A DNA stretch of 47,802 nucleotides from Anaerolineales bacterium. Its GTDB lineage: Bacteria > Chloroflexota > Anaerolineae > Anaerolineales > Villigracilaceae. Position numbers and translations under genes: made by a program. Below the pieces are notes generated by a model. That model made no database searches and had not been told where the DNA came from. It saw nothing but the letters and a program-made list of their open reading frames with translations. This document shows positions 3,675 through 38,276 of this stretch, in pieces (position 1 is the stretch's first letter; every line of letters starts with the position of its first letter). Where the stretch lies: positions 1-47,802 of the forward strand of contig JAUXUL010000009.1 of the NCBI GenBank assembly GCA_030680795.1, written 5' to 3'.

Positions 3675-4295
3675 CTAAGAAAGATTAAGATATGATCTCA
3701 AAACTGTATCTAATCTTTTGAGTTTTTCTTCAAAGATATTTAAGTAACGACTATGCTCGCCGTTTATGACATTTCGAAATGCATGTAACGGCATTCTATC
3801 GAGAGTTGTAAACCATCCTGCTTGTGCCTTTGAAAGCTTGCCAAGTGTCTTTATGACTGTCTTATCCCAAACTGTATAGTCATTTATCCACTTTGAAAGA
3901 ACATTAGAGTCAGTAAGCCCTGCTCCAAAGTTTCTTAATTCCACACCTTCTGTGCGCAATTCAGCCAGTTTTTGAAGTTCAGGAGGCTCTTTTCCTTTCT
4001 TCTTGTAATTGGCGATGATCTTTTCCAATCTCAGATTTTCTTGATAAGGCACAATAAAGATAACTGAAATCAGAACCAATAAAATATAAATTCCCAATGC
4101 AATAACAATTGTTACTCCAGCTGTTTGTGCGACATTCAAACGATTTTCTGTATTTTGAGCAATCAACAATCCTGCAATCAGAGAAATTACGACATCAATA
4201 ATTATTCCTCTTACTCCCAACCATTCCCACGTTCGCTGAATGCCGAAAGTAAGATTATTTTTCCAGTAATCGCCGAGCTTTTTATTATTGCTCAT
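3675..4295 (-). CDS. Two-helix membrane protein with coiled tail, unknown
   Basis: I chose the start MSNNKKLGDYW at 4295 because an upstream in-frame start would overlap the GcvT-like gene; this leaves a 7-nt gap after that gene's stop at 4303. The 206-residue product has two hydrophobic helices (roughly residues 30-46 and 62-86). A charged, probably helical cytoplasmic region follows (KIIANYKKKGKEPPELQKL). I do not recognise the family. The gene is distinctly AT-rich compared with the flanking GcvT and oxidoreductase genes, suggesting acquisition. It sits as an insertion in what looks like a metabolic gene group. Confidence 0.6.
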   Translation of the reverse strand: MSNNKKLGDYWKNNLTFGIQRTWEWLGVRGIIIDVVISLIAGLLIAQNTENRLNVAQTAGVTIVIALGIYILLVLISVIFIVPYQENLRLEKIIANYKKKGKEPPELQKLAELRTEGVELRNFGAGLTDSNVLSKWINDYTVWDKTVIKTLGKLSKAQAGWFTTLDRMPLHAFRNVINGEHSRYLNIFEEKLKRLDTVLRSYLNLS

Positions 4296-10187: not shown

Positions 10188-10265
10188 ATTAATTTTCTCC
10201 ATTCGGGGTTTTTATAATGCACGAAAAAACTTTCACGAAATTATACAGCAATGCCTATCATCCTT

Positions 10266-10271
10266 TATAAT
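10266..10271 (+). promoter_or_regulatory. -10 box upstream of enoyl-CoA hydratase
   Basis: A TATAAT hexamer lies 45 bp before the ATG. The -35 region is weak (possible TTATAC at 10241-10246 with long spacing). Confidence 0.45.
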
Positions 10272-10315
10272 TTGCGCTGTGGGCGGTCTCAATGCCCAAC
10301 ATATTTGGAGGCAAA

Positions 10316-11089
10316 ATGGCTTACACAACAGTTATAACAGAAACTCGCGGGCGAGTGGGCATCGTGCAATTAAATCGTCCACAGGCGATGAATGCGTTTA
10401 ATACTGCCATGCTCACTGAACTTTTTGACGCACTCGAGGCATTTGATAAGGATAATCATATCGGCGCGATCATCGTTACAGGCAATGAAAAAGCCTTTGC
10501 CGCAGGCGCAGATATTAAAGAAATGGCGGAGGCTTCCCCGTTTCAAATGATCACGGAAGGGCGTGTGGAATTATGGGATCGAATCCGCGGGATAAAGAAA
10601 CCTGTCATCGCGGCAGTATCAGGCTGGGCACTGGGCGGCGGATGCGAGTTTGTGCTTTCATGTGACATGGTGATTGCATCCGAGTCCGCTAAGTTTGGTC
10701 AGCCTGAAATCACCATTGGCATCATCCCCGGCGCGGGCGGCACACAGCGCCTTGCGCGTTTGCTTGGCAAACAGCTTGCCATGGAAATGGTCATCAATAA
10801 CCGCACGCTGACTGCCGCCGAAGCGCTTCATTTTGGATTGGCGAACCGCGTTGTTCCTGTGGATGGCTGCCTCGAGGCCGCTGTTGCATTCGCTGAAGAA
10901 ATCGCCTCGCGCGCGCCGCTGGCTGTCCGCATGGGAAAGGACGCGGTCAATGCCGCCTTCGAAACCTCCCTCACCGAAGGACTTAAAACCGAGAAGCGCA
11001 ATTTCTATCCGCTGTTTTCTACCGAAGATCAAAAGGAAGGCATGCAAGCCTTCATTGAAAAACGTAAAGCGGATTGGAAAGGGAAATAG
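10316..11089 (+). CDS. Enoyl-CoA hydratase/isomerase
   Basis: From the ATG at 10316, preceded by GGAGG at ideal distance, the product is 257 residues, the normal length of a crotonase. It hydrates trans-2-enoyl-CoA in fatty-acid or amino-acid degradation. Visible signatures are the oxyanion-hole segment AFAAGADIKEMAE, the helix GWALGGGCEFVLSCDMVIA, and FGQPEITIGIIPGAGGTQRL with the catalytic Glu in PEITIGIIPG. LKTEKRNFYPLFSTEDQKEGMQAF is the typical C-terminus. No other beta-oxidation gene is adjacent, so the exact pathway (short-chain, crotonyl or methylglutaconyl) is not shown. Confidence 0.92.
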   Translation: MAYTTVITETRGRVGIVQLNRPQAMNAFNTAMLTELFDALEAFDKDNHIGAIIVTGNEKAFAAGADIKEMAEASPFQMITEGRVELWDRIRGIKKPVIAAVSGWALGGGCEFVLSCDMVIASESAKFGQPEITIGIIPGAGGTQRLARLLGKQLAMEMVINNRTLTAAEALHFGLANRVVPVDGCLEAAVAFAEEIASRAPLAVRMGKDAVNAAFETSLTEGLKTEKRNFYPLFSTEDQKEGMQAFIEKRKADWKGK

Positions 11090-17235: not shown

Positions 17236-17323
17236 GGCGAGTCCGCTTGAGCGGGGATTGCAGGAATAGCCCGTGGGTTAATCCACGGGCGGGGATGAGA
17301 TGGAGGGGGAATGCGCGGGGTGG
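17236..17323. repeat. Dispersed repeat, family 1, copy A
   Basis: The core is GTCCGCTTGAGCGG followed by ATAGCCCGTGGGTTAATCCA and CGGGCGGGGATGAG. It has an internal palindrome CCCGTGG-GTTAAT-CCACGGG. Related copies are at 18282-18365 (nearly full length) and 19519-19561 (right half only). Confidence 0.75.
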
Positions 17324-17345
17324 TAAATAAAGGTAAAATACAGCC

Positions 17346-17678
17346 ATGAAAACGAAAGTGCCAGCGCGTATCAGGAAACTGATGAAAGAGTTGAAGGAAG
17401 GACTTGTCCGCATTTACGGGGATAAGTTGAATGCCGTCTATTTGTATGGGTCTTATGCGCGCGGAGATTATCGCCAGGGGTCAGATGTGGACGTGATGAT
17501 TTTATTAAACGATTACACGGACTATTGGAAAGAGTGGCGGCGTTCCAGTGATTATGTCAGCGATGTTTCGCTTAAACATGATGTGACAGTGAGTTGCATT
17601 ATCATCAAGGAAATACAGTGGAAACAGTCCGATAAACCTGTGCTTTATAACATTCGTCGAGAGGGATTACCTGCATGA
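17346..17678 (+). CDS. Minimal nucleotidyltransferase (MntA-like)
   Basis: The 110-residue protein contains the pol-beta superfamily motif GSYARGDYRQGSDVDVMI (GSx10DxD), the catalytic core that binds metal and nucleotide. A third acidic residue follows in DVSLKHDVTVS. It overlaps the next, HEPN-domain gene by four bases (ATGA). Such pairs form toxin-antitoxin modules in which the nucleotidyltransferase adenylylates (AMPylates) and silences the HEPN ribonuclease. Here the nucleotidyltransferase comes first, the order seen for many PF05168-type HEPN pairs. It has a short upstream space that includes a repeat copy. Confidence 0.85.
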   Translation: MKTKVPARIRKLMKELKEGLVRIYGDKLNAVYLYGSYARGDYRQGSDVDVMILLNDYTDYWKEWRRSSDYVSDVSLKHDVTVSCIIIKEIQWKQSDKPVLYNIRREGLPA

Positions 17679-18052
17679 AAGAACATTCCAGTAAATTGCT
17701 TGATAAGGCATTAGACACCATTGAAGGCGCGGAAGGCTTGCTCGATATGGACAAAGCGGAGATAGCGGCTGGACGGGCATATTATGCAATGTTCTATGTT
17801 GCAGAAGCCCTGCTTTATGAAAGAGATTTTCAATTCAGCCAGCATGGTCAAGTAATTGCGGCGTATGGGAAAGAGTTTGCGAAAACAAAAGAACTCGACC
17901 CAAAATTTCATCGCTGGTTGAGAGCGGGTTTTGATACTCGCATTTCTGGGGATTATGATGTGGATACAGATATTAGCAGGGAAATTGTGGCCAATATGAT
18001 TAATGAAGCGCGGGAATTTTTATTGACCGCGCGAGAGTATTTGGAAAAATAG
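17675..18052 (+). CDS. HEPN-domain protein paired with nucleotidyltransferase
   Basis: The 125-residue all-helical protein has the HEPN signature AAGRAYYAMFYVAEALL in its first half and a second helical pair ending in EAREFLLTAREYLEK. Many HEPN toxins cut RNA with an R-x4-6-H motif. I do not see a clean one here (the nearest region is PKFHRWLRAGFDTR), so it may be non-catalytic or use a variant. Start and stop overlap with the nucleotidyltransferase gene shows they are made together. The most likely role is toxin or effector of a type VII-like module. Confidence 0.85.
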   Translation: MKEHSSKLLDKALDTIEGAEGLLDMDKAEIAAGRAYYAMFYVAEALLYERDFQFSQHGQVIAAYGKEFAKTKELDPKFHRWLRAGFDTRISGDYDVDTDISREIVANMINEAREFLLTAREYLEK

Positions 18053-18080
18053 AATTGTCAGTTCGAAATGAATGGGTTAG

Positions 18081-18129
18081 TGTGTGCATCGCACCTGTTT
18101 CGGCGGGATGAGTCAACGCGATGGTGGGG
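18081..18129. repeat. Dispersed repeat, family 2, copy A
   Basis: The core GTGCATCGCACCTGTTTCG followed by a GCGGGATGAGTCAACGCGAT-like segment recurs at 19567-19617 and 20293-20343 with scattered substitutions. It starts with a GTGC...GCAC palindrome. No coding content. Confidence 0.7.
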
Positions 18130-18148
18130 TTCGTCGGGACGCTACGCA

Positions 18149-18219
18149 GTCCCTGCCTCAGTGCATGGAAACCCTGCGGGCTGAGCCGCCTTTGGCGGCT
18201 TTCACGTACTGAGGCAGGA
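18149..18219. repeat. Long imperfect palindrome
   Basis: GTCCCTGCCTCAGT and ACTGAGGCAGGAC pair as outer arms. A perfect inner hairpin GCCGCC-TTT-GGCGGC lies at about 18185-18199. It sits between a family 2 and a family 1 repeat and could fold as a cruciform or act as terminator after the HEPN gene. Confidence 0.6.
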
Positions 18220-18281
18220 CTTTAGTCCGCACTGGGCATGATGCCGCACTCGCTACGATGAAATGAGTGTTACCCGTGTGC

Positions 18282-18365
18282 AAGTCCGCTTGAGCGGACT
18301 TCGTAGGGATAGCCCGTGGATTAATCCGCGGGCGGGAATGAGGTGGAGGAAAATTGCGCGGGGCG
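18282..18365. repeat. Dispersed repeat, family 1, copy B
   Basis: The most complete copy: AAGTCCGCTTGAGCGGACTT is itself a palindrome. It is followed by the CCCGTGG-ATTAAT-CCGCGGG palindrome and CGGGAATGAGGTGGAGG. It shares most positions with copy A. Confidence 0.75.
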
Positions 18366-18437
18366 CATGGCATAATGATTGAATCTTTTCCCCTCTTTGT
18401 GACATAATTATTTTCGATAACACTGGAGACACATCAC

Positions 18438-19109
18438 ATGTTTGAAGTAACATCTTCATGGAAGTCCACTTTTCCTGAGGGTCACACGGGGGTATTGATC
18501 ATGCGCGATGTCATCAACCATGCTCATCACTCTGAACTGGAAAAACGCAAAACAGAAATAGAGGAACAACTGCGTTCCCAATTTTCCGGGCGGGATCGCG
18601 CGGCGATGTCAAACCTACCCATCTTGCAGGCGTATAACACATATTATCGCCGCTTCAAAAAAACCTATCATGTTCAACTTCAACTCGAATCAATTGTCTG
18701 GAAGGGAAAATCGATCCCAAGTGTGTCGGCTCTCGTCGAAGCCATGTTCATGGCAGAAATGAAGAATTTGTTACTAACAGCGGGACATGATTTGGATGTC
18801 CTGCACCTGCCTCTCACAATGGATGTTTCAAAAGGGACTGAAAGTTATTCATTACTGAGAGGGGATGAACAGGTTCTTAAGGCGGGCGATATGATGATAA
18901 GTGACGGAATGGGGGTTGTTTCGAGCATTGTGTATGGTCCCGACCAGCGCACGCAGATCACGGATGGAACACGGAATGTGTTGTTTACCGTCTACGCGCC
19001 TCCCGGAATTGATGGGCAGATAGTGACGCAACACCTGCAGGATATTCAGGAATACGTGATGGTAATTGCTCCACAGGCACAGGTTGATTTGCTCAAAGTT
19101 TATGGTTGA
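18438..19109 (+). CDS. B3/B4 tRNA-binding-domain protein
   Basis: This 223-residue protein resembles the B3/B4 domain of the phenylalanyl-tRNA synthetase beta chain, found alone in many bacteria. In the synthetase this domain hydrolyses mischarged Tyr-tRNA(Phe). Stand-alone forms are assumed to bind or edit tRNA or a related substrate. Visible features are LPILQAYNTYYRRFKKTYHV, PSVSALVEAMFMAEMKNLLL and GDMMISDGMGVVSSIVYGPD, which match the domain's order. A GGAG site precedes the ATG by 9 nt. It is flanked by repeats on both sides and is monocistronic. Confidence 0.8.
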   Translation: MFEVTSSWKSTFPEGHTGVLIMRDVINHAHHSELEKRKTEIEEQLRSQFSGRDRAAMSNLPILQAYNTYYRRFKKTYHVQLQLESIVWKGKSIPSVSALVEAMFMAEMKNLLLTAGHDLDVLHLPLTMDVSKGTESYSLLRGDEQVLKAGDMMISDGMGVVSSIVYGPDQRTQITDGTRNVLFTVYAPPGIDGQIVTQHLQDIQEYVMVIAPQAQVDLLKVYG

Positions 19110-19149
19110 GAGTAACGCGCCGAACCAAATAATATTTGGAACTAAAATC

Positions 19150-19495
19150 ATGCTCCCCATTCATCATATCGAAAGTTTCCTCAAGTACACGCCGCCGCAA
19201 TTGCAGGAGATCGTGTTGGAACTGAGGTTGTCTGCTGGGGAGGCTTGAGTTATTTTCATGAAGGGCGCGGGGTATCGTCAGCGCAGGGATATGCCAGATC
19301 GGTATTCACAAAGATCATGTCCGTTTGGCATTTATTCACGGGGCATTTTTGCCTGATCCGCATAAACTGTTGCGCGGCACACAAAAAGCCAAACGCTTCA
19401 TTGAAATTAAGTCCTATGACAATGCGCCATGGGATGATTTCAAGGAATTGGTCTTGTCTGCTTCCAAATTTGATCCGCGCTCGACAAACGAGTAA
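19150..19495 (+). pseudogene. DUF1801 gene remnant with frameshifts
   Basis: The first frame gives MLPIHHIESFLKYTPPQLQE to a TGA after GEA. A second frame continues SYFHEGRG, and a third continues VSAGICQIGIHKDHVRLAF, LPDPHKLLRGTQKAKRF and KSYDNAPWDDFKELVL to TAA at 19493. Together these make a DUF1801 protein (a small YdhG-like fold of unknown function) that has lost an internal piece and suffered at least one further indel in the GGGCGCGGGG stretch. It ends next to a truncated family 1 repeat, so insertion-linked decay is plausible. Confidence 0.75.
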
Positions 19496-19518
19496 AAGTG
19501 GGTGAGAGGATACTTCGC

Positions 19519-19561
19519 AAAATCCACGGGCGGGGATGAGGTAGGGGGAAAATGCGCTGGG
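19519..19561. repeat. Dispersed repeat, family 1, copy C (right half)
   Basis: Only the right half is present: AAATCCACGGGCGGGGATGA and the following GGTAGGGGGAAAATGCGC. It abuts a family 2 copy. Confidence 0.65.
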
Positions 19562-19566
19562 TGAGA

Positions 19567-19617
19567 GAGTGCGTTGCATCTGTTTCGACGCGACAAGTCA
19601 ACGCGATGGGATATTCG
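19567..19617. repeat. Dispersed repeat, family 2, copy B
   Basis: GTGCGTTGCATCTGTTTCGA and CAAGTCAACGCGATGGGAT match copies at 18081 and 20293. It directly follows family 1 copy C. Confidence 0.65.
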
Positions 19618-19676
19618 AAAAATAAAGCCCGACGATGAACTATTCGTCGGGCTAAAAATTTTTTGATCGTTGCTTT

Positions 19677-19892
19677 CTACACTACCAGCGGGGAGAGTTT
19701 GTATACGCGGGCTAATTTGGTCGCGGTTTGAAAGTCCTTCTGTCTCAGTGCCTCGCGGACATCATCCAGTTTCATCGCGTCTGCCACTGATAAATAGGGA
19801 GACCAGTCGTCGTCCGCGTAAATTAATTCAACGTCCACTTCCGCGACGTATTCATCAACGTGAATCAGCTTGGAGACCTGTTTTTTTGTCAT
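19677..19892 (-). CDS. Small antitoxin-like protein beside DUF4258
   Basis: The 71-residue acidic protein ([20 protein letters not shown], then [17 protein letters not shown]) starts inside the stop of the DUF4258 gene, overlapping by four bases. The layout of a DUF4258 protein followed by a short acidic partner recalls RelE/HigB-type pairs. It could neutralise the DUF4258 protein. I do not recognise the family by motif; the role is inferred from gene order and size. Confidence 0.6.
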
Positions 19893-20164
19893 TTCTTTCT
19901 CCTTGTAAAATCATCCGACCAGCGCGCAGGGTCAGGTCTGTAAGCCGTTACCAGCACAGCAGGGAATATAGCATTTTTCGGGATGCCCCAGAGAATGTGA
20001 ATTGGTTTGCCTTGCCTGTCTTTTTGTAACACCAATACACAGGAACCTTTGGCATAATCGGGGTAATCTTCAACGATAATCGCCGCGAGAACGTCTGCCA
20101 AAACATCGCGAACGAGGATATTATCATCAGCCAGTTCATCGTATCCATGAGCGGATATTTGCAC
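19889..20164 (-). CDS. DUF4258 protein, likely RelE-like toxin
   Basis: This 91-residue protein has the DUF4258 pattern: [20 protein letters not shown] at the start (the conserved HxxxRM-like helix), a middle strand pair ([18 protein letters not shown]) and the end [17 protein letters not shown]4258 proteins are distant RelE/BrnT-like folds. I took the GTG at 20164 as start; the open frame extends further upstream ([15 protein letters not shown]) without an obvious start codon, so the true N-terminus may be longer. It lies upstream of a short acidic partner in one unit. Confidence 0.7.
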
Positions 20165-20292
20165 CTGGTTTTGCTCGATGAGTTTGAGAATTTTCTGGAG
20201 TGTTTTGCTTATTGGTTGGGATGTCCAAATGGATTATACATGAAAATGAAAATGGCTATGCGTTGAAAGGGGCGATGGAATCTTGGTAAAGG

Positions 20293-20343
20293 AGCGTGCG
20301 TCGCACCTGCTTCGACCGGATGAACCAACACGATGGGATTCGC
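20293..20343. repeat. Dispersed repeat, family 2, copy C
   Basis: GTGCGTCGCACCTGCTTCGA and GATGAACCAACACGATGGG correspond to copies A and B. The rest of 20165-20614 holds no gene; it carries this repeat and the promoter region of the transporter operon, including TATAAT at 20574-20579. Confidence 0.65.
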
Positions 20344-29036: not shown

Positions 29037-29216
29037 TCTGATTAACATCATTAGAGGACCCGAGATCCATAACCTTGGCAAGACTCACAAGGATGAGGAA
29101 GTTCTGCGGCTGGTGCGCGAGCTCGTGCAGCAGAAAGGTTTTTGTTCGGCGTCAGCCGAAAGGGTGGCATTGCCAACCAGCGCCGACCAGCGGGAGGCGC
29201 AAATTTTTTGCGCGGC

Positions 29217-29252
29217 AAATCAGCCCTTCCCATCACTGGGTAGGGCTGATTT
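29217..29252. terminator. Bidirectional terminator after ardC-like gene
   Basis: AAATCAGCCCT and AGGGCTGATTT form a perfect 11-bp stem with T-runs outside on both strands, 16 bp beyond the stop of the minus-strand gene. Confidence 0.8.
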
Positions 29253-29267
29253 TTCCTGTCTTGTTTT

Positions 29268-30071
29268 TTATTGTTCGCAGGCGTTAATGATCTGGCTGGC
29301 GCATTTGATGATCCTCTTCCCCGACTCTTTGATCTGTTCGGGGCTTGACCAATGCGCGAGATAATTCGGCGCGTTGGTCTCGATCCCGAAATGCTCACAA
29401 ACGATAAAGGCGGTGGCTTCGGCTTCGGTCTCTTTTTGTTCGCTGCCCATCTCGTAACGGCCTTCATGTAAAAGCATGTGGGCGGCTTCGTGAATGAGTG
29501 CTGACGTGCCTGCGTTGGGACGTGATACGATCTCGCGGACTTTGTAATTTACATGGGCTTCTTCCCTCATTTCGTCCTGTTCGCGGTAGCTGTATCCGTT
29601 TACCTTTGCAAGTTCGATCAAGGCGGTGTGTATTTTCGCGTTTCGTTCTTCGGTGCGCCATTGCAGAGCCGCGGGTAGGGGTTCGCCTTCGGTTTGTTCG
29701 ATGTCGAAAACGCTCACGACTCTAAAGCGGTTAGCGTTCCCGTAGACCTTGCGCTCTTTTCCGGTCTCTTCGTCCGTCTCGGTATGGTGTGAGGCAAATC
29801 CACAAGGCGCAAGGATCGCGATTCCATGCTCCCCTTTCCTGACTTGGCGCTTGAGTTCCTTCCAGCGGTTGTATCCTGCGACGCGGGAGGCGCTTGGTTT
29901 CTGGAAGAGGATCAACCAGATATTCGAGGCGCTGTATTTGTGGAACTTGGCCGCGGTTTTGAGGTAGGCGATAAACTGCGCGGATTTCTGCGCCGTGTTC
30001 GTCAGTTCTACGAGTCCTTTTAATCGTTCCTCATAATCGGCTTTTACTTCCTGTGCTTTTTCGGTTTGCAT
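29268..30071 (-). CDS. ArdC-like antirestriction/zincin protein
   Basis: The 267-residue protein has two parts. Residues about 10-125 match the ArdC N-terminal ssDNA-binding domain (YSASNIWLILFQKPSASRVA, KRQVRKGEHGIAILAP). The rest is a zinc peptidase-like domain with HEAAHMLLHEGR and the downstream EAEATAFIVCEHFGIE. ArdC-type proteins protect incoming mobile DNA from restriction and cover single-stranded DNA. Its place directly after tRNA-Glu suggests the start of a mobile island. It has its own terminator. Confidence 0.85.
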   Translation of the reverse strand: MQTEKAQEVKADYEERLKGLVELTNTAQKSAQFIAYLKTAAKFHKYSASNIWLILFQKPSASRVAGYNRWKELKRQVRKGEHGIAILAPCGFASHHTETDEETGKERKVYGNANRFRVVSVFDIEQTEGEPLPAALQWRTEERNAKIHTALIELAKVNGYSYREQDEMREEAHVNYKVREIVSRPNAGTSALIHEAAHMLLHEGRYEMGSEQKETEAEATAFIVCEHFGIETNAPNYLAHWSSPEQIKESGKRIIKCASQIINACEQ

Positions 30072-30119
30072 TTTGTGTTCTCCTTTTGGGTTGTGTGGTG
30101 TCGGGGGCGATGAAATTCA

Positions 30120-30446
30120 AATTCCATCACCCACACTTTCCAAAAAGCACCAAAAAGCAAAGGCGTACCCGCCGTAAAAATGCAAGGTTGGTGAGACGCA
30201 TAAAAAACGAAAAATTGGTGGGCGAAGGCACCATCCAATTTTTATGTACTCCCTATGAAGATTGCGCGGCACAAGCCCGGAAGCCTTGTATTTTTTAGCT
30301 TGGTGCTATGCCGACAGTCGCAACGTGCCGTAGGAATTGCGATAGTTTTTGAGCAAGGGCAAAGGCCGTGCGCCGAGGCGTACCTATAAAAAGCGCCCCG
30401 ACGCCATGCACTTAAAGATCGGTGGAAAACCCCTGGGAGACCACCC
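30120..30446 (+). other. Hairpin-rich non-coding stretch before RNA copy 1
   Basis: No gene is convincing here. Several local inverted repeats occur: AAAATTGG and CCAATTTT near 30215-30245, ACAAG and CTTGT near 30270-30290, and TCGCAA with TTGCGA near 30318-30341. The region may be the 5' half of the RNA that begins at 30447 or its leader. A short plus-strand open frame (MKFKFHHPHFPKSTKKQRRT) crosses it but lacks support. Confidence 0.35.
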
Positions 30447-30813
30447 AAGTGAGCAGGGAAGAAGCGTCAAACGAGGACTTAGCGGGGTGGGCATGCCGGG
30501 CGGCTGTGCGCAGGCGAATGTTCGTTGAGCTTCCGCAAGAAAGGGAATTGTGGCGCGTTTGGCTCGTTTTTCACCACCCAAGCCCTTGAATAAAAAATCA
30601 AGGGACTGCCCGTCAGGGATGGCGTTCGTCCACCCTTTATTTTTTATGGGCGGGTGGTAATGCCAAACGTGATCAAGGAAATGAATTGCGGCTGCGCTCT
30701 GCCGTCCCGTGCTTGCATGACTACCCAGCGACGGCGAAACAAAACAACCCATGCATTGGAATGGGTTGTTGTTTGGCCGGAAGCCGAAGTTTGAGCGCGG
30801 ATGACCGCGAACG
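30447..30813 (+). ncRNA. Large structured RNA, copy 1
   Basis: This 367-nt segment matches 33961-34325 (365 nt) along its length, and neither has a conserved protein frame. Stems in order are GCGTTTGGC with GCCAAACGT (30555-30563/30662-30670), ACCACCC with GGGTGGT, ATAAAAAATCAAGGG with CCCTTTATTTTTTAT (one mismatch), GCCGTC with GACGGC, and AACAACCCAT with ATGGGTTGTT around the loop GCATTGGA. Paired positions change together between copies, and G-U pairs in copy 2 fit only a plus-strand transcript. Both copies begin AAGTGAGCAG. Named candidates are HEARO/omega RNA or GOLLD-type RNA; I cannot decide. Confidence 0.75.
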
Positions 30814-30879
30814 CTTCTTGAGTGTGGAGTATCTCAATGGCAGGATGGTTTGGATCTTGTGACTATTAATAAAATAAAC

Positions 30880-30911
30880 AGCAACCGCCTCTACTAGCAA
30901 CCGCCTCTACT
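30880..30911. repeat. Perfect 16-bp tandem duplication
   Basis: AGCAACCGCCTCTACT occurs twice in a row (30880-30895, 30896-30911). It may be a slippage or insertion-site scar between RNA copy 1 and the Arg-like tRNA. Confidence 0.8.
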
Positions 30912-30992
30912 ATAAAGACAGTTGCTGCACGCTTTGTTAGGTGGCGGGTTTAAGAATACTTTTTTGTCTTTTCAGTGCTAAAATCCACTTGT

Positions 30993-31065
30993 GCCTCAGT
31001 AGCTCAATGGATAGAGCGCAAGTCTACTAAACTTAGGGTTGAGGGTTCGAGACCCTCCTGAGGCA
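30993..31065 (+). tRNA. Arg-like tRNA with anticodon ACU
   Basis: The cloverleaf is good: acceptor GCCTCAG/CTGAGGC, D arm GCTC/GAGC, T arm GAGGG/CCCTC with TTCGAGA, 5-nt variable loop. The anticodon stem has a C-A mismatch at its top pair. The loop CTACTAA gives anticodon ACU, which pairs with the Ser codon AGU. The body (A20, C35, U36, class I variable arm) looks like tRNA-Arg(UCU) with U34 changed to A. A73 is followed by CAA, so CCA is not encoded. It may be a decayed attachment-site tRNA or a functional variant. Confidence 0.75.
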
Positions 31066-31242
31066 CAACCTTTTTGTAAGTTTTTTTTAATGTATTCTTA
31101 ATACATTGATGTATAATGGTGTTCAGTAGACTTGCTTGTTGAGCTAGACCACAAGTAATAAGACAAGAAGCGTCCTGTTCCTGTCCGCCCCGCCCCAGCA
31201 ATGGGGCGGTGTGCGTTAAAAATGCTGTGTCAAACAATAAGT

Positions 31243-31848
31243 TCACTTTAGCGTATCCCTTTCTCTGATGTAATTCAAGGCGTTCAATAAGTAATTTTCG
31301 CCGTTTTTGAATCTACCTAAACCCGTATTGCAACTATCACAAATGAAATCTCGAATATTTCCTGTGTGGTGGTCATGGTCAGCGACTATCTTCGCCGTAA
31401 TACCAACAATAGACCTTTTCCTACAAATTGGACATACAAACGGCTCACCATTTTTAGGCTTCTTTTTTTCCATTTCTTTGGCTTGCTTTGTTTTCGGCGC
31501 TCGCTTATCTATGGTTGTTCTACATCTACGGCAAGATGGTCTTCTTACAGACCCATGTAAATTATTTTGATTCTTATCAAATTGGGCAATGGGCTTTAGG
31601 CAATGACAAACATTACATATTTTAAAATCGTATTTGTCGCCAGATTTCGTAACGTCTACAAGTCGAGTGTCGGCTTTTGGTACAGCATAAATGCTGTCAA
31701 CGCCTATCAACCAAACAATAAAATTGTCTCCGTCTTCACCCTCAACTAATCCAACCGAGTCAATATCAAAATTCGTCTCAAGCCTTTCTTTGATATTGTC
31801 TTTGTAAAGATTTCCTTTTCCTTTATAACACACGACCCATTTGCTCAT
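31243..31848 (-). CDS. Endonuclease VII/Hpy99I-type restriction enzyme
   Basis: The 201-residue protein ends in a His-Me finger nuclease domain: VADHDHHTGNIRDFICDSCN (His residues 158, 160 and 161), then NTGLGRF. Four CxxC pairs (near residues 78, 106, 139 and 170) can hold two zinc ions, as in the restriction enzyme Hpy99I and phage endonuclease VII. The first 75 residues are a separate beta domain. Its start overlaps the stop of the methyltransferase gene by four bases, so the two make a type II restriction-modification pair. The recognition site is unknown; similarity to Hpy99I is from domain memory. Confidence 0.75.
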   Translation of the reverse strand: MSKWVVCYKGKGNLYKDNIKERLETNFDIDSVGLVEGEDGDNFIVWLIGVDSIYAVPKADTRLVDVTKSGDKYDFKICNVCHCLKPIAQFDKNQNNLHGSVRRPSCRRCRTTIDKRAPKTKQAKEMEKKKPKNGEPFVCPICRKRSIVGITAKIVADHDHHTGNIRDFICDSCNTGLGRFKNGENYLLNALNYIRERDTLK

Positions 31849-32639
31849 TTTATACTCTTCAATCGTGACTTGGCGATTTTTATGTATTCGGCGGATATAT
31901 CAATTCCAAGATAGTTTCTGTCAGATAAAGCAGCCATTTTGCATGTTGTACCAGAGCCGCACATTGGGTCAAAAACCAAGTCGCCTTTGTTGCTCCATGA
32001 CAATATGTGGTCACGGGCAAGTTTTTCTGGGAATACCGCAGGATGTTGAAATGCTATTTTGTCACTTGTTGTCCCACCTAAACCAACGGCGTATTGCCAG
32101 ATATTTGTTTTCGTTTTTGTTGACTTTAATTCTTTCAGAACCTTCTTGTTTACGCCATCTGATTTTTTGTTATGAACAATCATTTCAAAACCCTCCCTAA
32201 CAGTTTTTTCGGTAAGGGGATTGAAGGTTTTTGGTTTACTTTTCGATAGTACAAACATAAATTCATAACAATTTGTATAAGCATTAGACCGCATAAAAGG
32301 AGTATTCTTTTTTTGATAAATCATTACATCGTGAATATTAAACCCTAACTCTTGAAAGTAAATCCCTTGCCTGAAACTGGTAAGACTTTTTCCGCCGTTG
32401 ATTCTGTCACCAACTACCCAAACGGCAACACCGCCAGTCTTTAATACCTTGAATAACCCTTGTGCAATAGCAGGAAAATCAAATTTATATCCCTTGTAAT
32501 CCCGTAGATTATCATAAGGTGGTGATGTAACAACTAAATCAACACAATCGTTAGGCATTGCGTTCATGAACTCAACGCAATCGGCAACATATAGCCCATT
32601 TAATATCTCTGGTATATTCTTACTATTTAGCATTTTCAT
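31845..32639 (-). CDS. DNA methyltransferase, beta class
   Basis: This 264-residue enzyme has the catalytic motif TSPPY (residues 38-42) near the N-terminus and the SAM-binding motif FDPMCGSGTTCKMAAL near the C-terminus. That order is typical of beta-class N4-cytosine or N6-adenine methyltransferases. It protects host DNA against the overlapping nuclease. It lies 9 nt after the MazF-type gene in one minus-strand cluster. The methylated base cannot be told from sequence; TSPPY is compatible with either. Confidence 0.85.
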   Translation of the reverse strand: MKMLNSKNIPEILNGLYVADCVEFMNAMPNDCVDLVVTSPPYDNLRDYKGYKFDFPAIAQGLFKVLKTGGVAVWVVGDRINGGKSLTSFRQGIYFQELGFNIHDVMIYQKKNTPFMRSNAYTNCYEFMFVLSKSKPKTFNPLTEKTVREGFEMIVHNKKSDGVNKKVLKELKSTKTKTNIWQYAVGLGGTTSDKIAFQHPAVFPEKLARDHILSWSNKGDLVFDPMCGSGTTCKMAALSDRNYLGIDISAEYIKIAKSRLKSIK

Positions 32640-32648
32640 ATTCCAATT

Positions 32649-32987
32649 TTACAACTCTTTCAAAATACTTATCGCCATATCAATTACTTCTTGCGTTTTT
32701 TCTGGTTTTATTTTTCCAACAGAATAATCAATAATCGAAGGTTCAGCGGTAAAAAAATGATTGGCTCGAATGTAACAAGGGTTAACTTTCAATTCACCAT
32801 ATCGGAAATCTTCTTTTGATAGAACAATCGTATATTCTGTCCTTGTACTCTGCTTCGTTATTTGGCATAAAATCACTTCATCGCTTCTTGGAACTGCTAT
32901 AACCAAAGCGGGTCTACGTTTTTCTGACTTCAAATCAGAATATGGGAATGGAAGAATTACTACTTCTCCTTTGACAAATACGCCCAT
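32649..32987 (-). CDS. MazF/PemK-type toxin
   Basis: The 112-residue protein begins VKGEVVILPFPYSDLKSEKR RPALVI, the beta-barrel start of PemK/MazF endoribonucleases. The conserved Arg-Pro-Ala and a later LCQITKQSTRTEYTI segment, with polar residues in the expected places, support catalysis of RNA cleavage. Its start overlaps the 3' end of the Panacea-domain gene by 28 bp. The expected role is growth inhibition when the antitoxin is lost, which stabilises the neighbouring restriction-modification genes. Confidence 0.85.
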   Translation of the reverse strand: MGVFVKGEVVILPFPYSDLKSEKRRPALVIAVPRSDEVILCQITKQSTRTEYTIVLSKEDFRYGELKVNPCYIRANHFFTAEPSIIDYSVGKIKPEKTQEVIDMAISILKEL

Positions 32988-33550
32988 GCTTCATCCTCCT
33001 CTTTATTATCCCAATCCTTTGCTAAAACGCGTTCCGAAGCCATCATAAGGCGATACGCCATAGACGCAGTATCTTCTATTTTCGCCTCTTTTTGTGACAA
33101 TTCCAAACTGAAATCCAAAGGATTGCCGCGTTTACCAAGTTTTATCGGCGGTGTGTTGTAAACAAAGTCGAGAATTTCGCTTGTTTCCTCTAATGCCCAC
33201 TTCTTGATAATTTGGTTTATTTGTTGCTCTGTTGCAAAATCAACAAGTTTTGAAATGCTTTGCTCGTCAAAACTTCTAAAGGTAATCCCTTTGCCACTAC
33301 GAGTTAATACTTCGCGTGAGTCTAAATCAATACTCGCCGAGCGCAAAACATCACTGACTGCAAAAAAGTAGGGTCCAAAACTGTAATATACCCAATCTAT
33401 GCTAGTAAGGGTTTCTTTATGACGCTTGAAATACTCCAAGTCAATTAAATAGAGCAACTTAACCAATCGGATTGTGGAAATTTGTGCTTCCATATCCTGC
33501 AACTGGTCAACAAGGTAAAGTAATAGTTTTCTAACTAAGTCTCTTTTCAT
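32960..33550 (-). CDS. Panacea-domain antitoxin (SocA/DUF4065)
   Basis: This 196-residue protein has the SocA/GepA-like Panacea pattern: RLVKLLYLIDLEYFKRHKET, WVYYSFGPYF and FDEQSISKLVDFATEQQ. Panacea antitoxins neutralise many unrelated toxins in two-gene operons. Here the gene overlaps a MazF-type toxin, matching that arrangement. It is the first gene of a four-gene minus-strand cluster that continues into a methyltransferase and its nuclease. No promoter is obvious. The extra C-terminal helix region (EDEAWAYLSKEK) may contact the toxin. Confidence 0.8.
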   Translation of the reverse strand: MKRDLVRKLLLYLVDQLQDMEAQISTIRLVKLLYLIDLEYFKRHKETLTSIDWVYYSFGPYFFAVSDVLRSASIDLDSREVLTRSGKGITFRSFDEQSISKLVDFATEQQINQIIKKWALEETSEILDFVYNTPPIKLGKRGNPLDFSLELSQKEAKIEDTASMAYRLMMASERVLAKDWDNKEEDEAWAYLSKEK

Positions 33551-33960
33551 TTCGTTTTGCCAATTATAACAACCATCTTGATAAAGTAGTTCACGACTAG
33601 CCGCCTAACTATGTGTTTAGCCACCGTTTGACGGGGTAACGGCTTATGGGCGGTCAAAGATTAAGAGAAGGTTAATTTAGTAAGCATTCTACAACCAAAG
33701 TGGCGGGAGTTCAATACCCATATTCTATTCGGATACTCCAGGGGAAAAAGGTATCTCTGGGCGTGCAGTTTTTCACTATGGCGATTTAGAGATTACCAAG
33801 AAGTGGGAGAGAGGTCACTAATAAACTGATGTAGCAGAAGGGTTTCTGATCAGACGATTGTCGAAATTGATGGAAATATCTGTGATTACGGAAGGTGTCC
33901 TAGCATCTCTAAGCGGACATGAGTGTAGTACTTTATCTTAGGGAGTCGTATCGTCTGTGT
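33551..33960. other. Gene-free stretch before RNA copy 2
   Basis: No supported gene. A plus-strand frame (about 33690-33822) reads FYSDTPGEKGISGRAVFHYG then DLEITKKWERGH to a stop, which could be a fossil C-terminus, but it has no start. The left part contains the promoter region of the Panacea gene. Confidence 0.3.
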
Positions 33961-34325
33961 AAGTGAGCAGTGAGTGCGCGCCAAACGATGGCTTAGCGTG
34001 TGGGCATGGTGGGCAGCTGTGCGTAGGCGAGTGTTCGTCGAGCTTCCGCAAGAAGGGGAATTGCCGAGTGTTTGGCTCGTCCTTGACCACCAAAGCCGCG
34101 GAATAAAAAAGCAAGGGTCTGCCCGAGAGGGATGGCGATTGTCCACCCTTGCTTTTTTATGGGCTGGTGGTAATGCCAAGCGCGAGCAAGGGAATGAATT
34201 GCGGCTGCGCTCTGCTGTCCCACGGTTGCATGCACACAAAGCGACGGCGAAAATAAAACAGCTATGCAGTGTAATAGCTGTTTTTTGGCCGTAAGCCGAA
34301 GTTTGAGCGTGGACGAATGTGAACG
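33961..34325 (+). ncRNA. Large structured RNA, copy 2
   Basis: It pairs with copy 1 at 30447. Equivalent stems are GTGTTTGGC/GCCAAGCGC (34078-34086/34175-34183, two G-U pairs), AAAAAAGCAAGGGT/ACCCTTGCTTTTTT (perfect, 14 bp), GCTGTC/GACGGC, and AAAACAGCTAT/ATAGCTGTTTT around the loop GCAGTGTA. The sequence GAATGAATTGCGGCTGCGCT is kept almost unchanged. The G-U pairs would be A-C mismatches on the other strand, so the plus strand is transcribed. A degenerate tRNA-like sequence follows after 32 bp. Confidence 0.75.
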
Positions 34326-34357
34326 ACCCCTGCAATAAATCAAAAAAGCAAAAGTGA

Positions 34358-34434
34358 GCCAGATAAGATTCGAACCAATGACCAAGCGATTTTAGGTTTT
34401 ATTCCTGATCGGTTATGATTTTGGGCATATCTGG
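34358..34434 (-). pseudogene. Degenerate tRNA-Leu-like sequence
   Basis: On the minus strand CCAGATA and TATCTGG pair as a 7-bp acceptor stem. TTCGAAT is a proper T loop between imperfect ATTGG/CTTAT arms. A long variable region (class II, Leu-like) follows an anticodon loop AATAAAA, which lacks U33 and would give UAA. The D arm is not recognisable. It is probably a decayed or phage-type tRNA. Confidence 0.45.
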
Positions 34435-34638
34435 AATTGTTTTCAAGCCAATAAAAACAATTGTCAAAGTTATTGGAAGAAATGCGCAAAGCCCTACTTC
34501 ATTTATGTTTGTAACCTCAAAGATAAATGTGCCAATGCAAATAGCTAATAGGAAACGAATTTCATTATTTCTCATAATAGAAACCTTTGTAAATATTTAG
34601 GACTCGATCCTAGAACCTAACGGTGTTTGGTTCAAATC

Positions 34639-35628
34639 CTATTGGAGTAATTTATACAGATCTCCTGCTTCTTTACAAAGCTCAATACATCTATCAACCC
34701 ATGACTGATACCAGTACCAAGCCCCCTGAATCTCAATACCGTATCCCTTGGCTGGATTCTTTGCGTCTTCTTGCTTCCACATCTTCAAATGCTCAGGCAT
34801 AATACGAAACTTGAGAAACCCAGCTTCTTTAATCTCTGTGACGACGTCGGTGGCGCGATACTTAGGCTTTTCTACTTCTTTTTTGACCCAATACTCTTTA
34901 TCAATAGCCTTGGCGAGTTCAGACTTTGGATCAATAAACTCGATTACACGGTCCGCTTGCCCTGGGCGATTTACCAACTTTTTCTTAAAAAGCAACCGGA
35001 ACGAAAAGCGAGGACTATTGTATTCTTCATGACTTAATGCACCATCAAATTCAGTAATATAGGAACGTAGCCGTTCCGGGATTGTTGCCTCCGGCAACAG
35101 ACCTGATAGTTGCTCTTCACTTAACTGCAAAAACTGGATACTATAAGCGACTTGCTTATCAATACCGTAACCATCCCCAAATAACTCTTTCAAGTAATCG
35201 TTGTAGTTGATTGCACTGGCCTGAAATCTTCCGCTCAAGTATGAGTCAAGAGATAGTGTCATTTGATGTTCAATTTCGTGACGTAAGCCAATCAGAAACC
35301 GCAAGTTATTTGAGGCATCTTTATCAATTGGATTGTTCTTTTCGTTTAAGCAACGCTCCAACTCCCAGTACTTGAATGCGCCGTGTTTAGTCTTATCAAA
35401 TACTCGTCTTTTTCCTTTTTGACTAAAGTATCGATATTCAATGCCTTGATTTCGATAATACGCGTGGAGCAAGTAAGTCCATGCTATAACCATCAGGACG
35501 ATAAATGATTCCGCCTTGAAAGTGACATGAGGGTCGTTATAGGTGCGGATTGCATTCAAAGCGGCCTCACGAGACTTTGATATCAACTCACTCTTTAGTG
35601 AGCCTATTCTCCTTACTCGTTTTGCCAT
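34639..35628 (-). CDS. DUF3644 HEPN-like protein
   Basis: The 329-residue protein matches DUF3644: SREAALNAIRTYNDPHVTFK at the start, WTYLLHAYYRNQGIEYRYFS, and RHEIEH at residues 116-121. RHEIEH is an R-x4-H HEPN ribonuclease motif. A C-terminal region (YRATDVVTEIKEAGFLKFRI) may recognise a target. DUF3644 proteins occur in antiphage abortive-infection settings. It lies 110 bp downstream of the helicase gene on the same strand, so it may be a toxic back-up for that restriction system. Confidence 0.8.
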   Translation of the reverse strand: MAKRVRRIGSLKSELISKSREAALNAIRTYNDPHVTFKAESFIVLMVIAWTYLLHAYYRNQGIEYRYFSQKGKRRVFDKTKHGAFKYWELERCLNEKNNPIDKDASNNLRFLIGLRHEIEHQMTLSLDSYLSGRFQASAINYNDYLKELFGDGYGIDKQVAYSIQFLQLSEEQLSGLLPEATIPERLRSYITEFDGALSHEEYNSPRFSFRLLFKKKLVNRPGQADRVIEFIDPKSELAKAIDKEYWVKKEVEKPKYRATDVVTEIKEAGFLKFRIMPEHLKMWKQEDAKNPAKGYGIEIQGAWYWYQSWVDRCIELCKEAGDLYKLLQ

Positions 35629-35738
35629 GTTTGATCCTTAAAGTGTTTAACGGTTTGCGTTACTTGCTGGTGGGCGTGGAATCTGCTTGGGATAAAACAT
35701 CTCGGAGATATAAAAATACTTGAAAATACCACCTTATA

Positions 35739-38276
35739 CTATTGTACATTCTCAAATATAGATTGATAATCTTTTGAACTTAACACCGTATCATAAAGCC
35801 CAATATCTTCACCTTCATGTTTATTAATCCCCGTATAAGCCAGACTGGAATCTTCGTATCTCTTGAATTTATATACGGCATCATTCATCAATGCGCTATT
35901 AAATAGGTTGAGGCTAACAAGTAACTCGAAATCTTTCACGGTCAAGCCTGTAACTTTCTTGAAAAGACCTGGTTCGAGTTGGGTAATGATGTCTCTTAAT
36001 GCCCGTTCTCTGTAATCGGTGAGATACATAAAGATTGGAACACGGGTGGCGAATTTGATTAACTTATCCTGTATCTGCTTGCGAAGACCCTTGTATTCCT
36101 TTTCGTCTTCGGTCAGTTCTTTTTTCTTCTTGTCCGATAGTTCCTTATCGTTAGCGTCCTTCTTGGCTTTCTTCACAGCCTCCGATTTGTTGATGATGGT
36201 TTCTATATCCTGATTTAGAGTACGGAAACCTTCAATACTCATGAGCGCATTCAGGGCGGTTTCGTTCGCCATTAATTTTTTCAGAGTGTCATTATCTACA
36301 TTGACCAGCAACGCGCTTTCCCAACGCCGCGCTAGCAGGGTGGCGGTTGTGCCGCTCATTGCCATATCCAAAATGCCTGCGGCGTCTATTTGTTTCATGG
36401 AACTGCCATCATAAGCAAGCACAGGCAGGAAACTGATAAATTCTTCAACCTTCTTTTCAGGATTGATTTCGTTGACATTCAAGCGACAGCCATAATCGGC
36501 AATTTGACGTAAGGCTCTATTTGGTGCGAAATCAAAGACATAACATTCTTCTTTTATGATTTGTTCTTCATTCGGTGAATCTCCATCAGGATTTTTTATC
36601 GTCCACGGAGATTGCACACGAAACGCCGCTTGAAAATACGTTTCAGGGCTGGATGAATTGCGGAGGATGAAAATTCCCGTCCACGGTTTGACGGTTACAC
36701 CTGTGGTCAACTTGCCGCATGAAAGCGTGATGGTCTTTGATTTCAGCGGTTCATCCATTGCTTCCTTTACAGGAGGCAATGCCCACACGCCAATGCCCGC
36801 CTGACTACCAGCGGCGACAACTACCTTGTAATCGTGATAAAACTTGTTTTGTTTTTGCGTGAGCAGGTTGCTCATGGCGTGACATGACGCAACGCTTGGC
36901 AAAAACCAGAAGGTGTGCGATAGGACTTTTAACAGCGGCGCATGGGAGAAAGGCATGGGAGGTTTCTTCGCGCCGAGTTTGAGATTATCAAGCGTGGTTT
37001 CCATAAACGCGCCGCGAATCAAATCCAGCCATTTTTGAACTTCATCTTCATATGTAAACCTTGCCATTATTCCTGCGCCTTCCGCTGAGAAGAAGATATT
37101 CAAATCAAACTCGTCATACTCGCCTTGCATGGCAATCTCGCGGATGGTGTCGGGCATTTGATAGGTAAGCAAAACCATGCGCGGCAACATGGCGTAGGGA
37201 TTTGCTTTGCCTTTCCAATCTCGCTTGGCGCGTTGTTCGTCTGAATACGTCCAATTGAAAATTTGCTCTTCGATAAATTCGCCTGACGCTATGGCGCGGA
37301 AGGGCGTGCCTGAAAGATAGAGATAAGCATTTGTGGTGATTGGCATGATGGCTTCATCGAAAATAATTTCATCGTAGCCCTCTTCCTTCAGGATTTCTTG
37401 ATTTTCACGCATGACGGCTAAATCATCTTTGTTTTTTTCAAATAACTCCTTAGCGTTATTTCTCCATGCGCCAAAGTGATATTCATCGAAAATGACGCAA
37501 TCCCATTGCGTAGTATGTACCCATTCATTTTTGGTCTTGATTCCGCCTGTGCTTTTGTTCTTGCCTAAATAATCTTGAAACGAGCCGAAACAGACGAAAG
37601 GTTTTTTCTTGTCTGCGTCTTCATAAGACAGCCCGCCTGGTGAAATAAACTGCCAGCCTTTGAAATCCAAATGACCTTTCAAATCGTCTTCCCATGCGCT
37701 TTGCACGGCGGGCTTAAAAGTGAGCACCAAGACCTTTGACCATTTCATTTTCTTTGCGAGTTGATACGAAGCAAAGGTTTTGCCGAAACGCATTTTTGCG
37801 TTCCAGAGGAAATGCGGTGTCTTGTCCTTGTTTTCTTTTTCCCTTTTGAAACTCTTGAAGTATTCAGCGGTCTTTTCCACCGCTTCTGCTTGTTCGGGTC
37901 TCATTTTGAAATCAAGTGTGCGATTTTCTTCGTTGCGCTCGCCTGTTTTGACGGCGAGATAGGCGGCTTGCACTTCCCTGACTGAACACGCAAACCATTC
38001 ACCTTTTGAGTTTTTAATTCCGATACTTCGCAAATGATGGTGAACTTCGTGGTCGTCGAAGACTGTGCCGTCATTCTTCATAGCGGATTCTTCAAATACA
38101 ATTCGATACGGCGCTGCCCCTGGGCGCAGGGTAGGATATTGTTGCGCGACGCGCCCCTGTACATTGACTGTGGTGTAACCGATTTTGAGCAAGCCTTTGT
38201 ACTGCGGATTTGTGTCTTCGTAGGCGTAAATTGCAGGGTGAGTATCAGGACGCGGGGGGAAGAAGTCTTTATTCAT
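35739..38276 (-). CDS. GIY-YIG nuclease fused to superfamily 2 helicase
   Basis: The 845-residue protein starts with a GIY-YIG/T5orf172-like domain (about 14-105): IYAYEDTNPQYKGLLKIGYT and GRVAQQYP. A helicase follows with Walker A-like NAKMRFGKTF (159-168), DEYH at 264-267 and later YLSGTPFRAIASG. The last third is helical and Lys-rich. It resembles restriction subunits that translocate on DNA and cut with a fused nuclease. Its start overlaps the end of the methylase gene by eight bases, so the two belong together. The system type cannot be named with certainty. Confidence 0.85.
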   Translation of the reverse strand: MNKDFFPPRPDTHPAIYAYEDTNPQYKGLLKIGYTTVNVQGRVAQQYPTLRPGAAPYRIVFEESAMKNDGTVFDDHEVHHHLRSIGIKNSKGEWFACSVREVQAAYLAVKTGERNEENRTLDFKMRPEQAEAVEKTAEYFKSFKREKENKDKTPHFLWNAKMRFGKTFASYQLAKKMKWSKVLVLTFKPAVQSAWEDDLKGHLDFKGWQFISPGGLSYEDADKKKPFVCFGSFQDYLGKNKSTGGIKTKNEWVHTTQWDCVIFDEYHFGAWRNNAKELFEKNKDDLAVMRENQEILKEEGYDEIIFDEAIMPITTNAYLYLSGTPFRAIASGEFIEEQIFNWTYSDEQRAKRDWKGKANPYAMLPRMVLLTYQMPDTIREIAMQGEYDEFDLNIFFSAEGAGIMARFTYEDEVQKWLDLIRGAFMETTLDNLKLGAKKPPMPFSHAPLLKVLSHTFWFLPSVASCHAMSNLLTQKQNKFYHDYKVVVAAGSQAGIGVWALPPVKEAMDEPLKSKTITLSCGKLTTGVTVKPWTGIFILRNSSSPETYFQAAFRVQSPWTIKNPDGDSPNEEQIIKEECYVFDFAPNRALRQIADYGCRLNVNEINPEKKVEEFISFLPVLAYDGSSMKQIDAAGILDMAMSGTTATLLARRWESALLVNVDNDTLKKLMANETALNALMSIEGFRTLNQDIETIINKSEAVKKAKKDANDKELSDKKKKELTEDEKEYKGLRKQIQDKLIKFATRVPIFMYLTDYRERALRDIITQLEPGLFKKVTGLTVKDFELLVSLNLFNSALMNDAVYKFKRYEDSSLAYTGINKHEGEDIGLYDTVLSSKDYQSIFENVQ

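What the first reader, a model, noticed from the sequence alone, without database searches (positions are those of the whole stretch)
30447..34325. Two copies of a ~366-nt structured RNA with compensatory changes
Seen: 30447-30813 and 33961-34325 align over their full length with five matching stems. Several base pairs change on both sides (T-A versus G-C in the long A/T stem, T-A versus T-G in the GYGTTTGGC stem). Wobble pairs indicate the plus strand. Both start AAGTGAGCAG. Known: HEARO/omega RNAs (IscB guide RNAs) occur as stand-alone copies and are associated with ATGA/GTGA sites; GOLLD-type RNAs lie near tRNAs and phages. Inference: a mobile or guide RNA family without a protein in this window.
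Basis: partly seen in the sequence, partly recalled or inferred. Interest (0 to 1): 0.88.

Follow-up and report, generated by a model that had tools for sequence, protein, structure and literature searches.

The report
Folded repeat at gene-cassette borders
Two long, intricately folding, protein-less repeats flank a defence-gene cluster in this bacterium; relatives show that the fold itself is preserved by evolution and that the repeat sits where mobile gene cassettes are joined, so it is probably a new family of mobile folded elements whose exact job is still unknown.

Summary
The two copies (30447-30813, 33961-34325; 81% identical) belong to a structured element, called E here, that I found neither in Rfam nor in six paper searches. 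The genome holds four copies, a congener one plus a 3' remnant, and two other genera of the family one each, one of them partial. On seven sequences 20 of 106 pairs change on both sides; sliding the partners gives at most 5.

E lies in integron-derived surroundings. The toxin-antitoxin cassette between the two copies on contig C45 sits between canonical attC sites in one relative; on C45 and in the congener an E stands in the attC position. The four local copies form a mosaic, so they have recombined. E is no standard attC: too long, unmatched by the attC model, basal GTT lost in G151.

Best reading: a non-autonomous, fold-conserved mobile element lodged at cassette borders; main rival, a cassette-borne non-coding RNA. 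The guide-RNA reading is not supported. RNA versus single-stranded DNA, and the mobilising enzyme, are undetermined.

The parts
30447..30813 (+). Element E, copy w1 (AAGTGA...GAACG)
33961..34325 (+). Element E, copy w2
30730..30779 (+). Arm P4 of w1: conserved GACGGCGAAA, GCANTGGA loop, TTTGGCCG; all 9 inner pairs show both-side changes across the seven sequences
34243..34291 (+). Arm P4 of w2
30361..30446 (+). 5' extension shared by w1, c45_1 and the G023 copy, absent from w2 and c45_2
30814..30935 (+). Tail after w1, shared with c45_1 and also following the G023 3' remnant
30926..30942 (+). Right half of a genus-type attC (TGCACGCTTTGTTAGGT); the similarity to contig C45 ends at 30935, one base before GTTAGGT
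29159..30935 (.). Segment duplicated on contig C45 (92.5%): ArdC-like gene, E copy w1, tail
29268..30071 (-). ArdC N-terminal domain gene (anti-restriction)
30993..31066 (+). tRNA gene (ARAGORN: Ser, anticodon ACT) between the E copies
31243..31848 (-). Endonuclease VII/His-Me finger nuclease; PADLOC: type II restriction enzyme
31845..32639 (-). N6/N4 DNA methylase
32649..32987 (-). PemK/MazF-like toxin
32960..33550 (-). SocA/Panacea-domain antitoxin
34639..35628 (-). DUF3644 gene (PADLOC candidate defence PDC-S19) right of w2
35641..35764 (+). Weak genus-type attC (23.9 bits), same orientation as E

Best explanation
E is a non-autonomous mobile element whose folded single strand is the conserved part. 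It carries no protein. Its unit runs from AAGTGA to GAACG: a basal stem P1, a short spacer and stem P2, a long rod P3 with a dispensable apex, and a conserved hairpin P4. Copies lie at the borders of integron-derived cassettes that carry toxin-antitoxin and restriction genes, and for one cassette in the place where an attC would be. Shown: the fold, the sharp ends, dispersed copies, the attC position for one cassette, and a mosaic among the four local copies. Inferred: that the fold is recognised by a transposase or recombinase supplied in trans, and that recombination between pairs of E copies helps the cargo between them to be exchanged.
For: Structure is selected: 20 pairs and 31 cells with both-side changes on 7 sequences, 0 of 500 shuffles, slid controls at most 5; w2 against G151 has 31 pairs unchanged, 12 changed on both sides, 0 on one side, 4 broken. 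Ends recur in different contexts: AAGTGA in w2, G023 and G151 (GAGTGA in c45_2), GAACG in w2 and G151, GGACG in G023, and the flanks outside are not complementary beyond chance for the G000 and G023 copies. Four copies on two contigs plus one copy and a 31-nt 3' remnant in a congener. Position: the RelE/HTH cassette of C45 lies between two attC sites in G046 (L188, attC at 3915-4054 and 4742-4881). Its similarity ends 28 nt before the attC in G046 and 23 nt before E on C45; in G023 its similarity to C45 stops exactly where the 5' extension of E begins. A 74-bit attC follows the gene next to E in G023 (this site was not used to build the model). Recombination: in the four G000 copies 11 sites at columns 11-31 and 335-360 group w1 with c45_1 and w2 with c45_2, while 9 sites at columns 105-108 and 274-326 group w1 with c45_2 and w2 with c45_1.
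Against: No empty site was found: the listed matches in relatives of G151 (list cut) lie on the tRNA/thioredoxin side only, and the left flank of the G023 locus matched other genomes of the genus only by one 73-nt stretch in G027. I saw no target duplication. No transposase or recombinase gene was seen beside the copies among the ORFs scanned. w1 and c45_1 are part of one 1.8-kb duplication, so independent insertions are few. In six other genomes with the toxin-antitoxin cassette (loci L189-L195, several on short contigs) no attC above 8.4 bits was found. G000 has no attC hit on C45 and only the weak one on the window contig. The mosaic can also be gene conversion. The family is small: 7 copies, one of them partial, in 4 genomes.
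Confidence: 0.42

Rival explanations
1. E is a non-coding RNA gene that travels as, or with, integron cassettes; the RNA acts in trans, for example by binding a protein through P4.
For: Covarying helices together with conserved unpaired letters (P4 loop GCANTGGA in six of seven sequences, GGCGAAA/TTTGG flanks) are typical of functional RNA. Between G000 and G023 the 3' part is 90.6 and 92.5% identical for two copies (82 and 84% for the other two) against 84.8% for the neighbouring toxin-antitoxin cassette.
Against: No promoter-like site on the plus strand in 30050-34700 (7 sites, all on the minus strand; shuffles give 9.9). Upstream sequence is not shared by w2 and c45_2 nor, by eye, by G151. 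Strand is undecided. No transcript data were available.
Confidence: 0.3
2. E is an outsized attC: P1 = R box, spacer, P2 = L box, and the rest a giant terminal structure, recombined by IntI.
For: E takes the attC position of a cassette, has a stem-spacer-stem base with GTT (GTTTGA) in the five G000 and G023 copies, and the G023 cassette is bounded by a 3' piece of E on one side and a whole E on the other. IntI is over the cut-off in 34 of 57 genomes of the genus.
Against: Published attC lengths are 57-142 nt (PMC2727003, passages seen). The genus attC model gives no match at E<=10 to any E copy in the window, L024 or L025. G151 has GGCTG, G143 GTATG where the others have GTTTG. Similarity continues 16-22 nt past GTT in the five copies, which a crossover there would not give.
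Confidence: 0.1
3. E is a guide RNA (IscB omega RNA/HEARO, or an IS110/IS1111 seekRNA) left without its protein.
For: Stand-alone copies, structure, sharp ends; some IS1111 members target attC sites (PMC11187229, passages seen).
Against: No HEARO match in the genome. seekRNAs are 70-100 nt. No IscB, TnpB or DEDD transposase family among the 30 ORFs that I chose for Pfam around the copies; a genome-wide search for these proteins was not made.
Confidence: 0.06
4. E is a decaying repeat kept only by duplication and gene conversion, with no present function.
For: Small, patchy family; a mosaic pattern; intI-like genes of the genome are in pieces.
Against: Compensatory changes between genera and conserved P4 letters.
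Confidence: 0.12

Closest known systems
Integron attC site
   Same: Palindromic, folds as a single strand, lies at cassette ends, stem-spacer-stem base
   Different: 191-367 nt, not matched by the genus attC model, conserved internal arm and loop, GTT not conserved
HEARO / IscB omega RNA (RF02033)
   Same: Large structured element, stand-alone copies, sharp ends (the stand-alone habit is recalled)
   Different: No covariance-model match; no IscB seen nearby
IS1111/IS110 seekRNA
   Same: Some IS1111 members are tied to attC sites
   Different: Much longer, no transposase seen, no target match shown
REP palindromes mobilised by TnpA-REP
   Same: Non-autonomous, palindromic, intergenic
   Different: REPs are 20-40 bp and high copy (PMC3733652, start of abstract in listing); E is 191-367 nt with few copies
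Group II introns in integron arrays
   Same: Structured elements in cassette arrays with toxin-antitoxin systems (PMC7923331, abstract)
   Different: No Rfam intron match (that Rfam holds intron families is recalled), no reverse transcriptase among the ORFs scanned

Membership tests
Integron attC | Matches an attC model built from the genus' own sites | tested here: not met
   R1 over 29 sources including window, L024, L025 found no E copy at E<=10
Integron attC | Length 57-142 nt | tested here: not met
   Complete copies are 191, 280 and 360-367 nt; range from PMC2727003 passages
Integron attC | R' box with GTT at the crossover | tested here: not met
   GTTTG in five copies, GGCTG in G151, GTATG in G143
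Integron attC | Stands at a cassette end | tested here: met
   C45 and G023 compared with G046; for one cassette only
Integron attC | Recombined by IntI | not testable with these tools
   needs a recombination assay
HEARO / omega RNA | Match to RF02033 | tested here: not met
   0 matches at E<=10 in own genome
HEARO / omega RNA | Adjacent iscB | tested here: inconclusive
   None among 40 chosen ORFs (30 around the copies; 10 elsewhere in the window); no genome-wide search for IscB
GOLLD, ROOL, OLE and other Rfam RNAs | Match at gathering score | tested here: not met
   Window: only two tRNAs; G151 and G023 stretches: none above gathering
IS110/IS1111 seekRNA | DEDD transposase beside the RNA | tested here: not met
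   No such Pfam family among the 30 ORFs scanned around the copies
Structured RNA | Covariation beyond shuffles and slid controls | tested here: met
   the alignment was fitted to model R2 and leans towards its structure
Structured RNA | Transcribed | not testable with these tools
   no expression data

The most novel reading that the evidence does not exclude
Probability: 0.12. Interest if true: 0.82.

Novelty: new variant of a known kind. Interest (0 to 1): 0.52.

Why it matters
If E is mobile, it is a protein-less element whose fold is kept while its helices change sequence, living at the borders of cassettes that carry defence and toxin-antitoxin genes. That would give a concrete handle on how such cassettes move in a bacterium whose own integron integrases are in pieces. 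If it is an RNA gene, it is a new family with strong covariation and a compact conserved arm to use as bait.

Tried and rejected
Giant attC made of E plus both flanks (5' extension and tail pairing with each other): dropped, because flank complementarity is at chance (duplex z between -0.93 and +1.32 over six copies and two flank lengths); only G151 goes further when the flanks are joined (z -1.7 at 30 nt, -2.2 at 60 nt).

Protein-coding repeat: rejected; no frame runs through all copies.

Wider family: R3 over 400 genomes of the order gave 10 genomes at E<=0.1. I accept 4 (G000, G023, G151, G143), all of whose copies were used to build R3. G095 (32.6 bits) lacks the P4 hairpin, and G001 and G068 are weak (alignments seen). 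G131, G132 and G060 are partial matches over 34-36 model positions whose alignments I did not look at. In one search, 5 of 152 genomes matched by BLAST; three (G105, G117, G170) are short hits that I judged chance from the printed sequence. Pattern for arm P4: 34 of 396 class genomes and 46 viral contigs. Of the 41 class places listed, 3 are E (G000 twice, G023 once); 28 of the other 38 and the 46 viral loci gave nothing above 14.4 bits with R2; the remaining 10 were judged only from the printed match. Phage and plasmid collections: no match. Viral patterns gave 1 and 6 contigs: part of the first was read and shows no other block of E by eye; the six gave only short matches in a BLAST with five copies and were not read.

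Papers: six searches listed nothing that, from titles and abstract starts, describes this element; this is not proof that it is unpublished. Passages of PMC12772301 were seen and not used.
Full report
What is there. The window holds two end-to-end copies of one element, 30447-30813 (w1) and 33961-34325 (w2), 81% identical. The same genome (G000, 54 contigs) holds two more on contig C45 (L024 9085-9449 = c45_1 and 10238-10597 = c45_2), 91-92% identical to w1. In a BLAST of 101 genomes, G000 included, only G000 and the congener G023 match. G023 has one copy of 280 nt (L025 9772-10051, minus strand) that lacks the upper part of the long arm, and a 31-nt 3' remnant 0.9 kb away. A covariance model of these five (R2) matched 4 of 152 genomes of the family, the new ones being G151 (191 nt, 82 bits, full length) and G143 (22.2 bits in the genome search, 29.8 on the locus; 3' half only), both in other genera. 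A core model (R3, built from all seven sequences) over 400 genomes of the order added nothing that I accept.

Structure. Laid out on the seven sequences (A6), the element has a basal stem P1 (CGYCAAAC/GTTTG-A-GCG), a three-base spacer, stem P2 (GGCTTA/TAAGCC in w2), a long rod P3 whose apex is missing in G023 and G151, and a hairpin P4 with conserved GGCGAAA...GCANTGGA...TTTGGCCG; one copy (w2) has GTGTA in the loop and G143 has GCTATGGA. For this structure 94.5% of 565 cells are paired, 20 pairs and 31 cells show changes on both sides, none of 500 shuffles reaches this, and sliding the partners gives at most 5 such pairs. All nine inner pairs of P4 have both-side changes. Between w2 and G151, 31 pairs are unchanged, 12 changed on both sides, none on one side, 4 broken. 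The alignment was fitted to R2, so these counts lean towards the structure; the P4 helix is plain by eye all the same. P2 is imperfect: two mismatches each in w1, c45_1 and G023 and one in c45_2. The strand is open: the plus strand folds at z -5.3 and the minus strand at z -4.9, and the wobble test gives 12 G.T against 7 A.C cells.

Boundaries. In w2 and c45_2 the similarity starts at AAGTGAG/GAGTGAG; in G151 the model starts at AAGTGA. The 3' end is GAACG in w1, w2, c45_1 and G151, GGACG in G023, GACCG in G143, AACG in c45_2. w1, c45_1 and G023 share up to 86 nt more on the 5' side (from 30361), and w1, c45_1 and the G023 remnant share a tail on the 3' side. w1 and c45_1 belong to one duplicated 1.8-kb segment (29159-30935, 92.5%) that includes an ArdC-domain gene. 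Flanks outside the element are not complementary beyond chance, G151 perhaps excepted.

Surroundings. Between w1 and w2 lie a tRNA, a restriction-type nuclease, a DNA methylase, a PemK/MazF-like toxin and a Panacea antitoxin; right of w2 lie a DUF3644 gene and a type IIG-like restriction system. Between c45_1 and c45_2 lies a RelE/HTH pair whose homologues in G023 are named by Pfam, and the same pair lies between remnant and copy in G023 (84.8% over 810 nt). This pair is an integron cassette: in G046 it sits at L188 4045-4713 between attC sites at 3915-4054 and 4742-4881, in an array of seven attC, six of which were used to build the attC model R1. On C45 and in G023 an E stands where that attC would be. 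The similarity between window and C45 breaks at 30935, one base before GTTAGGT, preceded by TGCACGCTTT, the right end of the genus attC. An attC of 74 bits, not used in R1, follows the gene next to E in G023, and a weak one (23.9 bits) lies at 35641-35764 in the window, in E's orientation. Against this: in the six other genomes with the pair whose loci I took (G012, G034, G051, G017, G043, G001; L189-L195) no attC above 8.4 bits was found, and of the 27 attC hits of G000 at E<=10 the 17 with E<1e-8 are all on contigs other than C41 and C45. IntI scores over the curated cut-off in 34 of 57 genomes of the genus, G000 included; in G000 the three best intI-like genes (C27, C24, C16) are each split into pieces (whose list was cut).

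Recombination among copies. Of the two-against-two sites in the four G000 copies, 11 (columns 11-31 and 335-360) group w1 with c45_1 and w2 with c45_2; 9 (columns 105-108 and 274-326) group w1 with c45_2 and w2 with c45_1; 4 (66, 76, 119, 124) group by locus. So the inner part, P4 included, has been swapped between the two copies of a pair. Excision of the cargo by recombination in one place and return in another would do this, and so would gene conversion. The G023 remnant begins at about column 338, close to the right-hand switch; that may be chance.

How it may work. I commit to a non-autonomous mobile element, recognised as a folded single strand and lodged at cassette borders, with copies that recombine and so help cargo to be swapped (0.42). 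Fold, ends, dispersal, the attC position of one cassette and the mosaic are shown; the recogniser and mobility proper are inferred. The strongest rival is a cassette-borne non-coding RNA (0.30). A giant attC (0.10) fails on length (57-142 nt in PMC2727003, passages seen), on the attC model and on loss of GTT in G151. Guide RNAs (0.06) find no support: no HEARO in the genome; seekRNAs are 70-100 nt and come with a transposase (PMC11187229, passages seen).

Known or new. Apart from tRNAs no Rfam family reaches its gathering score in the window, and only sub-threshold hits at E<=10 lie around the window, G023 and G151 copies. No phage or plasmid record matches. Six paper searches listed nothing like it. 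I file it as a new variant of a known kind: a structured non-autonomous element in a cassette setting. The family as found is small (7 copies, one partial, in 4 genomes), which limits the claim.

Noticed in passing
17237-20336: A second repeat system: block A (17237-17322, 18280-18365, partial 19521-19563) and block B (18073-18124, 19558-19609, 20285-20336). A and B are contiguous at 19521-19609 and elsewhere are split by genes, for example an MNT/HEPN pair (17346-18052), as if cassettes had entered the repeat.
   Followed up: partly
30993-31066: tRNA gene called Ser(ACT) by ARAGORN, lying inside the cargo between the two E copies; its body looks to me like a tRNA-Arg (recalled comparison), so the anticodon is odd.
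   Followed up: no
G000 contigs C27, C24, C16 (L222, L223, L224): Three integron-integrase genes, each in pieces (stop or frame breaks), while 34 of 57 genomes of the genus, this one included by one piece, score over the cut-off.
   Followed up: partly
33752-33900 and L024 7439-7587: A 149-nt non-E segment, 80.5% identical, shared upstream of w2 and upstream of the ArdC gene on C45.
   Followed up: no
L247 9800-10900: In G151 the element lies in a region of tandem repeats (about 48 nt, by eye) and nested palindromes on the 3' side of a tRNA; the matches listed for 80 relatives do not reach into it (list cut).
   Followed up: partly
L248 5400-5950: In G143 a second pair of repeats (GACTGGCAGGGMGGAACGAGGCACGCTCTGGCGAGCCTGCT...) lies between E and a TIR/pentapeptide gene.
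   Followed up: no
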